DNA from: Cognatiluteimonas lumbrici
GTDB lineage: Bacteria; Pseudomonadota; Gammaproteobacteria; Xanthomonadales; Xanthomonadaceae
NCBI RefSeq assembly: GCF_006476065.1
Contig: NZ_ML636798.1
Coordinates: 124,001-188,000 of the forward strand
Length of the DNA: 64,000 nt
Direction: 5' to 3'
The notes under the pieces are model-generated. The model saw only the letters and a program-made list of their open reading frames with translations, did no database searches and was not told the DNA's origin. Of the stretch, positions 49,111 to 59,579 are shown one piece after another (position 1 is the first letter of the stretch; each line of letters starts with the position of its first letter). A program made the translations under genes and the position numbers.

Positions 49111-49491
49111 TCAGAACACGCTGTCGGCCCCATCCTGCGGCCTGTACGCCCCGTCAGGCAACCCCCCTGGCCATGTGATCGTGCAGGAGCCTGGCGACCT
49201 CTTCCGGGGAGCCTCCTGGCAGTCCGTGAGGTCGAACACCGCGCGAGCGAATGGCGGGAGCGAGTAGTCAGCAGCATCGAGGAGGTCGTCCATGGCGAAC
49301 TCCGCACCATCGGCATCGAGTTCTCCGCCGATTAGGCGCTCCGCTACGGCAAGTGCGAATGCGTCGCAGAACTCCGGGATGGCTACGCCATGGATTTCGG
49401 AGATCTGCGCCAGCGTCTCCGGGAAAAGCGCGCTCTCGCCATTCGTGACCGTCGCGTAATGATGGAGCAAGGTCGCGATTGCCTGCTGCAT
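49111..49491 (-). CDS. Hypothetical protein, possible most-distal fossil cassette gene
   Basis: A 126-residue acidic, mostly helical protein (MQQAIATLLHHYATVTNGES; DADGAEFAMDDLLDAADYSL). I do not recognise the family. The ATG at 49491 is favoured because it lies ten bases after an attC relic (49501-49538), the spacing seen in the intact cassettes nearby; the frame is open to 49575 but that segment would run through the relic. Confidence 0.6.
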   Translation of the reverse strand: MQQAIATLLHHYATVTNGESALFPETLAQISEIHGVAIPEFCDAFALAVAERLIGGELDADGAEFAMDDLLDAADYSLPPFARAVFDLTDCQEAPRKRSPGSCTITWPGGLPDGAYRPQDGADSVF

Positions 49492-49500
49492 GCTGGCAGG

Positions 49501-49538
49501 GCCACTCAAGTGCGGTTCTCCGGACGCATTGCCAGGCC
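49501..49538 (-). other. Collapsed attC relic
   Basis: GCCACTCAAGTGCGG at the left and GACGCATTGCCAGGC at the right match the two ends of the intact attC sites (ACTCAAGTT; GAACGCATTGTTAGGC) with the whole centre deleted and core-box substitutions. It lies just 3' of the 49550-49900 gene, where an attC belongs. Confidence 0.5.
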
Positions 49539-49549
49539 TGCGACGGCTC

Positions 49550-49900
49550 CTATCGCGACCCATCGGTGATCGCATCCACGATGAGCAATGAGAACAGCAG
49601 CACGATGAAGCAGGTCAGCGCAGCCAGCACGTATTTGCGTGTGTTGCGGTAGATGGCCAGGAGATCCGGGGAGATCGGCTCACCAAGGTACTTCCCCGAT
49701 TGGATGGCTCGAAACAACTTGGTAGTGCGCCCCGGCGAAAGAAAGGAGGGCGGATCGGCACCTATCAATCGGGTATAGAGATGCGGATGCAGTCGCTGGA
49801 AGCCTTTGCCGAAGTCGTGCAGCGCCGTGAATGCCATCACATACAGGGGACCGATAGCCACGAACGACAGGAGGGACAGGACGTACAGGAAGCTGAGCAT
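49550..49900 (-). CDS. Membrane protein, probable fossil cassette gene
   Basis: A 116-residue protein with an N-terminal hydrophobic helix (MLSFLYVLSLLSFVAIGPLY) and a C-terminal one (YVLAALTCFIVLLFSLLIVD) around a basic middle (TKLFRAIQSGKYLGEP). The outline resembles UspB-like two-helix proteins, but this is not secure. A collapsed attC relic sits just past its 3' end. Confidence 0.65.
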   Translation of the reverse strand: MLSFLYVLSLLSFVAIGPLYVMAFTALHDFGKGFQRLHPHLYTRLIGADPPSFLSPGRTTKLFRAIQSGKYLGEPISPDLLAIYRNTRKYVLAALTCFIVLLFSLLIVDAITDGSR

Positions 49901-49928
49901 TCTTTACTCACCCTTATAGCCTTTTCTG

Positions 49929-50075
49929 TCAGGGGGCGCCCCGGTCCTCGGGAAAGACATCGGAGACCATGACCGTAAGACCCATGGCGGGAGACGAAGC
50001 GCACCCGGCTAGCACTGCTGCAAGGACCACGCTGCCAAGGCGATGCAATTTCGGCTTCAATGCATTGTTGGCCAC
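49929..50075 (-). CDS. Small lipoprotein with N-terminus encoded by an attC relic
   Basis: A 48-residue frame starting GTG at 50075: MANNALKPKLHRLGSVVLAA, then VLAGC, a good lipobox, then a short mature part ending PEDRGAP. AGAGG lies eight bases before the GTG. Codons 3-12 are the right end of a decayed attC site. Too short for homology by eye, but signal peptide, ribosome-binding site and position between two genes agree. Confidence 0.5.
   Translation of the reverse strand: MANNALKPKLHRLGSVVLAAVLAGCASSPAMGLTVMVSDVFPEDRGAP
50040..50073 (-). other. attC half-site relic (family B)
   Basis: GCGATGCAATTTCGGCTT and CATTGTTGGCC match the right half of the family B attC sites further right with few changes; the left half is missing. 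Core box GTTGGCC at 50067-50073. Confidence 0.65.
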
Positions 50076-50080
50076 CGCTA

Positions 50081-57805: not shown

Positions 57806-57821
57806 GACTGATCTCCATGAG

Positions 57822-57933
57822 GCCTAACACTCAAGTTAAGCCGCATCGTGCAGCGGGGTGGGCCAGGTGGCAAGCTCTACCTGCCGCCTGGGCCAGCCCG
57901 CGGAACGGTGTCGGCTTGAACGCATTGTTAGGG
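57822..57933 (-). other. attC site 1 (family A), nearest intI
   Basis: 112 bp; GCCTAAC 57822-57828 and GTTAGGG 57927-57933. It closes the first cassette. Confidence 0.93.
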
Positions 57934-57987
57934 CTAAGTGCGACCTCACGGAGTCGAACCCGAGACTGATTAGGCTTGATCGAATTG

Positions 57988-58362
57988 CTATCTCCCGTGA
58001 CCGGGTGGCCGCTCTACCCATGTCTTTTGTGAGCGAATCATCCATAACAAGCAATAGTAGGCCAGCACGACAATAGTCAAAAGGAGCGCCCAGTAAATAT
58101 ACGGGGAGCTGATTTGAAGCGACGCAAGCCTCATCATTGAGACTCCAACGAGTACGGCTGAAAGGAATGCGGCCAAGCAACGCAGCCGTGCTCCTAACGG
58201 AAGCACGAGCCAAGTGTGGCAGTGGGGGCATTGCAACTGGCCGCCCCTGCCACTAGGCGGCTTGCCCCCACCAAAACGGTAGTCGATTACGCCCCAATAG
58301 TCGGAAAGCGACCAACTGAGGGGCTCAGCGCAACGTGGGCAATGGACAGGAGCTTTAGCCAC
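57988..58362 (-). CDS. Zinc-ribbon membrane protein, first cassette
   Basis: A 124-residue protein beginning with GTG at 58362, three bases after the attI core. Two CxxC pairs (CPRC at about residues 8-11 and CPHC at about 47-50) form a zinc ribbon; two membrane helices follow (LRCLAAFLSAVLVGVSMM; YIYWALLLTIVVLAYYCLL). As the cassette next to attI it should be the most expressed if a Pc promoter exists. The frame also stays open through attI to 58452, but that start is less likely. Confidence 0.75.
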   Translation of the reverse strand: MAKAPVHCPRCAEPLSWSLSDYWGVIDYRFGGGKPPSGRGGQLQCPHCHTWLVLPLGARLRCLAAFLSAVLVGVSMMRLASLQISSPYIYWALLLTIVVLAYYCLLWMIRSQKTWVERPPGHGR

Positions 58363-58364
58363 AG

Positions 58365-58440
58365 GCCTAACACCTAGTCGATTGAAAAACGGGGTGTAGA
58401 CGGGCGGGATAGCCCCATCCAGCCTGTCCGCTCGCGATCG
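58365..58440 (-). other. Putative attI recombination site
   Basis: Core GTTAGGC on the minus strand (58365-58371) joins the first cassette to a unique sequence (CACCTAGTCG...) not present at the other junctions, as expected for attI beside intI. TTGAAA at 58382-58387 could be an intI -35, but its -10 is weak. No clear Pc promoter or LexA box was found. Confidence 0.6.
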
Positions 58441-58538
58441 GAAAAACCCCACGTATCCAACGCCTTATCCCCGACGGTGCGGCCTAAATCTGCGGCCTAG
58501 TCTTGCCGTGTATTCCGGATGCCTGGAAACACGCCCCG

Positions 58539-59579
58539 ATGGGATCGTCTCACCGCGAAACCCCGCCCGCAAGCGAGCCACCAGCCGCCACGGACACCGT
58601 GGCCAGCCCGCTCGAGGCGGACCGCCCCGGCAAGCTGCTCGCCGAAGCCCGCGCCCGCATGCGCCGCCTCGGCATGGCGCTGCGCACCGAGCAGGCTTAC
58701 GTCGGCTGGATCCGGCGCTTCATTCTCGCCAACGGCAAGCGCCATCCGTGCGGCATGGGCGCATTGGAGGTGGAGGCCTTCCTGACGCACCTGGCCATGC
58801 AGGGCAGGGTGGCAGCGTCCACCCAGAACCAGGCGCTTTCCGCGCTGCTGTTCCTGTATCGTGAGGTCCTCGGGGTCGAGCTGCCGTGGATGGAGGAGAT
58901 CCGCCGCGCCAAGCGTCCCAAGCGGCTGCCGGTGGTGCTGGCCCGCGAGGAGGTGCAGGCGCTGCTCGACGAGCTCGACGGCATCCACTGGTTGATGGCC
59001 AGTTTGCTGTACGGCACTGGGATGCGGCTGATGGAGTGCGTCCGTCTGCGGGTCAAGGACGTGGACTTCGGCCGCGGCGAGATCACCGTGCGCCAGAGCA
59101 AGGGCGCAAAGGACCGCCGCACAATGCTGCCGGCGCGCCTGCGCGATCCGCTGCGCGCGCAATTGCGCGAAACGCAGCGCATCCACCAGCGCGACCTGGC
59201 GGCGGGCTTCGGCGAGGTCTGGTTGCCCGACGCGCTGGAACGCAAGTACGTCGGCGCCGCGCGCGAGTGGGGCTGGCAGTACGTGTTCCCGGCCCGGCGG
59301 CGGAGCGTGGATCCGCGCAGCGGGGTGGTGCGCCGGCACCACCACGAAGAGAGCCTGCTGCAGCGGGCGGTGAAGTCGGCGGTGCGCCGCGCGGGCATCG
59401 CCAAGCCGGCCACCTGCCACACCCTGCGCCATTCCTTCGCGACCCACCTGCTCGAGGACGGCTACGACCTGCGCACCATCCAGGAGCTGCTCGGCCACAA
59501 GGACGTCGCCACCACCCAGGTCTACACCCACGTCCTCAACCGCGGCGGCCACGGCGTCCGCAGCCCGCTGGATCGTTAG
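58539..59579 (+). CDS. intI: Integron integrase (tyrosine recombinase)
   Basis: IntI inserts and excises cassettes by attI x attC and attC x attC recombination on single-stranded folded attC. The 346-residue protein is complete. All catalytic residues are present: Arg163 (GTGMRLME), His294 and Arg297 (HTLRHSF), His320 (LLGHKDV) and nucleophile Tyr329 (QVYTHV). The IntI-specific insert LPDALERKYVGAAREWGWQY occupies residues 229-248, which distinguishes it from XerC/D. Start ATG 58539 is chosen; a TTG at 58503 would add twelve residues. It diverges from the cassettes, as in most integrons. Confidence 0.95.
   Translation: MGSSHRETPPASEPPAATDTVASPLEADRPGKLLAEARARMRRLGMALRTEQAYVGWIRRFILANGKRHPCGMGALEVEAFLTHLAMQGRVAASTQNQALSALLFLYREVLGVELPWMEEIRRAKRPKRLPVVLAREEVQALLDELDGIHWLMASLLYGTGMRLMECVRLRVKDVDFGRGEITVRQSKGAKDRRTMLPARLRDPLRAQLRETQRIHQRDLAAGFGEVWLPDALERKYVGAAREWGWQYVFPARRRSVDPRSGVVRRHHHEESLLQRAVKSAVRRAGIAKPATCHTLRHSFATHLLEDGYDLRTIQELLGHKDVATTQVYTHVLNRGGHGVRSPLDR

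What the first reader, a model, noticed from the sequence alone, without database searches (positions are those of the whole stretch)
49111..59579. Chromosomal integron with an intact integrase and at least 13 cassette genes
Seen: intI with all catalytic residues and the IntI-specific insert, diverging from a run of leftward single genes separated by near-identical 111-112 bp attC sites with GTTAGGC cores. Known: IntI captures promoterless cassettes at attI. Inference: this array is a sedentary reservoir that may still be active, since the nine nearest attC sites are intact. Most cassette products are unrecognised.
Basis: partly seen in the sequence, partly recalled or inferred. Interest (0 to 1): 0.85.

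Follow-up and report, generated by a model that had tools for sequence, protein, structure and literature searches.

The report
One integrase, two integron landing sites
This bacterium has a single integron integrase gene but two gene-cassette arrays 1.58 million bases apart, each headed by its own attI landing site, so the one enzyme likely loads genes into both; related bacteria carry similar attI-headed arrays with no integrase gene beside them.

Summary
By itself it is an ordinary sedentary chromosomal integron.

The finding lies outside the window. The genome has one intI but a second array of 13 intact attC sites 1.58 Mb away, headed by a full-length second attI (attI2). A model of 13 intI-linked attIs, attI2 left out, gives two hits in the genome: attI1 and attI2 (E 6e-14). 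The first cassette behind attI2 is a 517-bp, 100% identical, core-to-core copy of an inner cassette, so attI2 was likely used recently with no integrase beside it.

attI2 lies near tamB. Luteimonas sp. 8-5 keeps an orphan attI there; two other congeners have intI at that spot. In 149 family genomes, 24 of 47 attI hits lack an intI beside them. Of 22 testable orphans (one from a genus search), 17 are followed by correctly oriented attC sites.

Best reading: attI-headed arrays without their own intI are probably served in trans by one integrase. A Shewanella prophage is a published one-off precedent. Trans service is inferred, not shown.

The parts
58503..59579 (+). intI, the only integron integrase found in the genome; ATG start possible at 58539
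58365..58512 (-). attI1, read toward the array; GTTAGGC core at 58365-58371
57988..58362 (-). cassette 1 ORF: zinc-ribbon-like membrane protein; GTG start 2 bp after the attI core; the frame is open back through attI to 58452
57822..57933 (-). attC of cassette 1, intact
57431..57805 (-). cassette 2 ORF, no Pfam match
57310..57421 (-). attC of cassette 2, intact
57011..57307 (-). cassette 3 ORF, Imm53 family
56893..57004 (-). attC of cassette 3, intact
56301..56876 (-). cassette 4 ORF, no Pfam match
56188..56299 (-). attC of cassette 4, intact
55900..56184 (-). cassette 5 ORF, Imm32 family
55795..55905 (-). attC of cassette 5, intact (111 bp)
55340..55790 (-). cassette 6 ORF, membrane protein (approximate ends)
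55228..55339 (-). attC of cassette 6, intact
54805..55224 (-). cassette 7 ORF, DUF4279
54684..54795 (-). attC of cassette 7, intact
54237..54680 (-). cassette 8 ORF, DUF4279 just below the cut-off
54131..54242 (-). attC of cassette 8, intact
53714..54127 (-). cassette 9 ORF, lipoprotein-like, no Pfam match
53596..53707 (-). attC of cassette 9, intact; last intact site
52133..53582 (-). older cassette genes with lost or truncated attC: membrane protein 53289-53582, secreted-protein-like ORF 52928-53261, glyoxalase family 52526-52876, cupin 52133-52480
51831..51943 (-). degenerate attC, 84 bits
   Evidence: L107 5832-5944
49111..51826 (-). oldest tail: ORFs of unknown function with remnant half-sites (for example 50031-50078)
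59620..61260 (+). aidB-type acyl-CoA dehydrogenase flanking intI; beside intI also in Luteimonas sp. 8-5 and G006

Best explanation
A single chromosomal integrase gene, intI in this window, likely serves two attI-headed cassette arrays: array 1 beside it and array 2, which begins with its own full-length attI 1.58 Mb away near tamB and has no integrase gene. Shown: one intI in the genome; two attI sites; both arrays intact near their attI; a cassette directly behind attI2 that is a perfect core-to-core copy of a cassette further in; an orphan attI at the same tamB locus in a sister species; and orphan attI sites followed by attC sites in other genera. Inferred: IntI made at the aidB-side locus binds attI2 in trans and inserts cassettes there. 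Also inferred: orphan attIs arise when an integron platform is duplicated or replaced and its intI is lost, and they persist because a resident integrase still uses them. Not tested here: recombination at attI2.
For: One intI only. attC sites occur in two clusters; array 2 has 13 intact sites. attI1 and attI2: 38 of 48 letters match over the core-proximal stretch and similarity runs across about 165 bp; 0 of 2000 single-letter shuffles reach the score of 51, best 32. A sequence model of 13 intI-linked attIs (attI1 and 12 others, attI2 left out) gives two hits at E 10 or better in the whole genome: attI1, which is in the model, and attI2 at E 6.1e-14 (150 of 430 first-look candidates were scored). 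The first cassette of array 2 is 100% identical over 517 bp to an inner cassette, from GTTAGG core to GTTAGG core. Luteimonas sp. 8-5 (G003) has intI beside aidB and an orphan attI (E 6e-21) with attC sites near tamB, as in this genome. No intI remnant lies between tamB and the attI in either (best E 0.42 and 0.55). In 149 family genomes there were 47 attI hits in 29 genomes; 21 lie beside an open or near-complete intI, 2 beside a partial or broken one, 24 (in 20 genomes) have none at E 1e-20. In 15 of those 20 genomes a near-complete intI is present elsewhere. Of 25 orphans with the genus one, 22 had room for a test and 17 have attC sites on the array side and in the array direction, 15 of them within 900 bp; none has attC on the other side in the stretch read.
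Against: No recombination was measured. attI2 is only 62-68% identical to attI1. The internal copy, not the attI2-proximal one, could be the newer, and gene conversion could have homogenised the pair. Five of 22 testable orphans show no attC (G050 C4, G078 C107, G089, G105, G130 C277). G130 C277 has a distant tyrosine recombinase (34% identity) on its array side, and the two G109 orphans keep short intI remnants, so they are not clean cases. Four genomes with orphans have no intI hit at all and one has only a fragment, so their sites cannot now be used by a resident IntI. G252, of another family in the order, has five attI hits but only a truncated intI: orphans can also outlast the integrase. 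In G005 the orphan attI does not match the type of its resident intI. Many assemblies are fragmented; the single-contig or three-contig cases are G000, G152, G131 and G252.
Confidence: 0.68

Rival explanations
1. Array 2 is a fossil: a second complete integron stood at tamB, its own intI made the array and the cassette copy, and was then deleted; attI2 is now unused.
For: In G001 and G005 an intact intI stands between attI and tamB, and in G001 the array between them ends towards TspO, as array 2 does here. G078 has an attI beside a broken intI and G121 has two intI-attI pairs, so two-integron genomes and decay occur.
Against: The sister species also lacks intI at tamB, so the loss would have to predate the split or happen twice, while the copied cassette shows no substitution in 517 bp. 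No remnant of intI was detected there. The intI at tamB in G001 and G005 is of another lineage, with an attI the model scores at 18 bits against 53 and 75 for the orphans.
Confidence: 0.22
2. Array 2 was seeded by insertion at a non-canonical genomic site (attG) that resembles attI by chance.
For: Insertion at attG sites is reported in the literature (mentioned in the passages read of PMC12444791); clusters of attC without intI are common in Xanthomonas.
Against: The likeness covers the full 148-position attI model, not only the core, and recurs at the orthologous place in G003.
Confidence: 0.03
3. The copied cassette is an assembly artefact or the product of homologous recombination, so it says nothing about integrase activity at attI2.
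For: Repeats are prone to assembly error; the reads could not be inspected.
Against: The identical block starts and stops exactly at the GTTAGG cores, and the left junction joins it to attI2, which shares only the core with attC. The assembly has 3 contigs and 99.93% completeness.
Confidence: 0.07

Closest known systems
Sedentary chromosomal integron (Xanthomonadaceae type)
   Same: Array 1: intI, attI and same-direction cassettes with attC sites of one pair of families.
   Different: A second attI-headed array elsewhere in the chromosome without intI.
[quoted passage not shown]
   Same: Array 2 would be classed so: 13 attC sites and no intI nearby.
   Different: It has a full-length attI at its head. 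In the passages read of the 2025 Xanthomonas survey (PMC12444791) CALINs at recurrent loci are reported and IntegronFinder's attI option was switched on, but those passages mention no attI at them; its supplements were not seen.
Shewanella prophage M16-3 (PMC9892861, passages read)
   Different: Reported there as a single prophage case; here chromosomal, at an orthologous locus in two species, and recurrent in several genera.
Delta-attI-type gene cassettes of mobile integrons (PMC12901181, abstract and outline only)
   Same: attI sequence away from its usual place takes part in recombination.
   Different: There partial attI sites act as the downstream end of a cassette; here a full-length attI heads an array.

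Membership tests
Complete chromosomal integron (array 1) | intI with the IntI-specific stretch and catalytic residues | tested here: met
   (catalytic identity of the residues recalled)
Complete chromosomal integron (array 1) | attI beside intI | tested here: met
   conserved with intI-linked sites of 12 other loci
Complete chromosomal integron (array 1) | several attC sites in one direction behind attI | tested here: met
   nine intact sites
Complete chromosomal integron (array 1) | integrase active in excision and insertion | not testable with these tools
   needs an assay
CALIN (array 2) | at least two attC sites and no intI nearby | tested here: met
   13 sites; the only intI is 1.58 Mb away
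attG-seeded array (array 2) | no attI at the head of the array | tested here: not met
   attI2 found by a model that does not contain it, E 6.1e-14
attI platform served in trans (array 2) | full-length attI at the head of an array without cis intI | tested here: met
attI platform served in trans (array 2) | sign of cassette insertion at that attI | tested here: met
   core-to-core identical copy behind attI2; which copy is newer is not known
attI platform served in trans (array 2) | the resident IntI recombines at that attI | not testable with these tools
   needs a recombination assay

The most novel reading that the evidence does not exclude
Multi-platform integrons: in Lysobacteraceae and relatives one integrase routinely runs several dispersed attI-headed cassette arrays. 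The orphan attIs are kept under selection as recombination sites while their integrase-side element (the GTAGG box) decays, so a share of what is filed as CALINs are working insertion platforms rather than debris, and their fixed positions are explained by a fixed attI.
Probability: 0.55. Interest if true: 0.78.

Novelty: new variant of a known kind. Interest (0 to 1): 0.64.

Why it matters
Integrase-less attC clusters are common and their origin is debated. If many have their own attI and are served in trans, then a genome's integron capacity is not limited to the locus beside intI, cassettes could be loaded at several chromosomal places with different expression, and the recurrent positions of such clusters get a simple cause that can be tested with a standard recombination assay. 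The attI model made here gives a way to look for such sites, which a search for intI and attC alone does not show.

Tried and rejected
Rfam at gathering thresholds gave nothing in the window. No PADLOC model matched the ten cassette ORFs tried. The idea that one array was split in two by an inversion was dropped: array 2 has its own complete attI and the arrays share no cassette over the lengths compared. The idea that array 2 was seeded at a chance site was dropped. The idea that attI2 is simply the old tamB attI of congeners is weakened, because G001 and G005 have another attI type there; how a site of this type came to tamB stays open. The thought that orphan attIs track the resident integrase is only partly borne out: 12 of 16 orphans with another attI of their own genome in the alignment are closest to it, but G050 C4, G066, G078 C107 and G089 are not, and G005 goes against it.

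Cassette exchange between arrays of one genome was looked for in 12 genomes. The only 100% identical cassette-sized pair was the one in this genome. First-cassette copies at 90% (G056) and 86% (G152) were seen; the long repeats in G109 and G152 look like elements inserted at attC, not cassettes. Two literature searches were useless because the term matched 'attitude'.

Limits: the attI model covers one attI type; sites of the other type are largely missed. Family and order samples were drawn evenly, not complete. 13 of the 28 linked sites in the column comparison were also used to build the model.

Full report
What is in the window. intI (58503-59579, +) is open and aligns over residues 46-358 to the solved integron integrase 2a3v. 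It diverges from minus-strand cassette genes separated by nine intact attC sites of 111-112 bp between 57933 and 53596. Two attC families alternate (92-93% identical within the two main families, 68% between). Left of 53596 the sites are degenerate or truncated. Cassette products include Imm53, Imm32, two DUF4279 proteins, and in the decayed part a glyoxalase-family protein and a cupin; most have no Pfam match. Ten ORFs from both arrays match no PADLOC model. Taken alone, this is an ordinary sedentary chromosomal integron.

The second array. A BLAST search of the own genome (2.36 Mb, 3 contigs) with one attC gave 25 matches in two clusters: beside intI, and at C1:1765135-1772362. The second cluster (locus L106) has 13 intact attC sites on the array-reading strand plus a truncated one. 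Only one integron integrase is found in the genome; the other hits are short C-terminal matches to other tyrosine recombinases.

attI2. Array 2 starts with a sequence like attI1: 38 of 48 letters over the core-proximal part and similarity over about 165 bp, with 0 of 2000 single-letter shuffles reaching the score. A model built from 13 intI-linked attIs, attI1 among them but not attI2, gives two hits at E 10 or better in the genome: attI1 (3.8e-24, in the model) and attI2 (6.1e-14); 150 of 430 first-look candidates were scored. The gap between tamB and attI2 gives no intI remnant (best E 0.42).

A trace of recent use. The first cassette behind attI2 is identical over 517 bp to an inner cassette of array 2. 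The identical block begins at the GTTAGG of the attI2 junction in one copy and of an attC junction in the other, and ends at the next GTTAGG. attI2 and that attC share only the core at the left edge, so homologous recombination does not explain the junction; an integrase does. The perfect identity suggests a recent event. Which copy is newer is not known, and gene conversion could have kept them alike.

The same place in relatives. The contig with intI in G003 is identical to the record of Luteimonas sp. 8-5, and the first 8 kb of the intI contig of G005 are identical to the record of Luteimonas weifangensis WF-2; both are in the window's genus. G003 has its intI beside the same aidB-type gene as this genome and also an orphan attI (E 6e-21) near tamB, followed by attC sites. 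G006 also has intI beside the aidB-type gene and attC sites next to tamB, with only a partial attI-like match (E 0.0086 in that call). In G001 and G005 an intact intI lies between attI and tamB, and in G001 the array runs from there towards TspO, the gene that also lies beyond the far end of array 2 here. So the tamB-TspO interval is an integron site from which intI is missing in this genome; tamB next to an intI-less array is seen in G003 and G006. The integrases of G000 and G003 group together (support 0.92) and apart from those of G001, G002, G005 and G007; deeper nodes are poorly supported. tamB was not looked at in G002, G004, G007 and G008.

How common it is. In 149 family genomes the attI model gave 47 hits at E 1e-4 or better in 29 genomes, two or more hits in 13. 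By the position of intI, 21 hits lie beside a near-complete intI, 2 beside a partial or broken one, and 24 in 20 genomes have none at E 1e-20. Fifteen of these 20 genomes have a near-complete intI elsewhere, four have none (G011, G021, G106, G134), one has a fragment (G131). In G021 (82% complete) the orphan sits beside the aidB-type gene, that is, at the place where this window has intI. With the genus case there are 25 orphans; three lie too near a contig end. Of the 22 others, 17 have attC sites behind them in the array direction, 15 within 900 bp; G050 C4, G078 C107, G089, G105 and G130 C277 have none. G152, one contig, has one intI, one linked attI and two orphans with 10 and 5 attC hits in the stretches read. 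In 151 order genomes 13 had hits. Three of them were followed up: of nine orphan sites in G252, G171 and G277, six have attC behind them, and one locus (L259) also has an attC hit on the other side. G252 has five attI hits and only a truncated intI, so orphans also occur where the integrase is lost. The other order genomes were not followed to attC.

How orphans may arise. In G109 the orphan on contig C3 and the linked attI share 356 bp at 98.6%, including the start of intI: a recent copy of the platform with a cut intI. G078 has an attI beside a broken intI. G121 has two intI-attI pairs. These look like stages of duplication and integrase loss. The orthologous G045-G089, G066-G106-G131 and G078-G130 flanks show that some orphan sites are older than the species or genera that carry them.

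Constraint. Over 28 linked and 25 orphan sites the boxes GATTAGG, TAGGCTGC and the core are about equally conserved, while the T of a GTAGG box is 28 of 28 in linked and 14 of 25 in orphans (Fisher 5.8e-5 before correction for the 57 well-conserved columns). Three other columns drop by 0.33 to 0.38, two of them outside that box, and 13 linked sites were also in the model, so this is a hint. The box could belong to the integrase promoter; that is a guess.

Literature. [quoted passage not shown] The 2025 Xanthomonas survey, seen in passages (PMC12444791), reports CALINs at recurrent loci in about half the genomes and says CALINs can be mobilized in trans; the passages seen mention no attI at them. 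I found no report in those listings of a recurrent multi-attI arrangement in chromosomes, which does not exclude one in papers not held.

Verdict. Observation confirmed; interpretation partly supported and incomplete. The better description is one integrase with two attI platforms, a variant of the known integron, with trans service likely but not shown.

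Noticed in passing
window 57988-58452: The reading frame of the first cassette is open through the attI core back to 58452, and the cassette's own first start (GTG, 58362) lies 2 bp after the core; its translation may depend on what is upstream.
   Followed up: no
window 48982-49072: ARAGORN calls a tRNA-Asp that overlaps a minus-strand ORF beyond the old end of the array; possibly spurious.
   Followed up: no
L205, L206, L207 (G152) and L210, L211 (G109): Arrays hold repeated 1.3 kb and 1.6 kb blocks at 90-99% identity that start at or near attC sites; they may be insertion elements or introns that target attC.
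   Followed up: no
L251-L255 (G252): A single-contig genome of another family of the order has five attI hits but only a truncated intI.
   Followed up: partly
L190, L196, L201 (G066, G106, G131): Orphan attI sites with homologous flanks in two genera; in G106 the flanking gene is a GH35 beta-galactosidase.
   Followed up: partly
window 54237-55224: Two neighbouring cassettes both encode DUF4279-like proteins although their attC sites belong to different families.
   Followed up: no
L199 2326-3141 (G130 C277): A distant tyrosine recombinase gene (34% identity) lies just behind an attI hit, on the array side.
   Followed up: no
attI alignment A1: The linked attI consensus holds a near-palindrome around GTGTAGGA-TCCTACAC between the distal repeats and the core, perhaps a regulator or promoter site.
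   Followed up: partly
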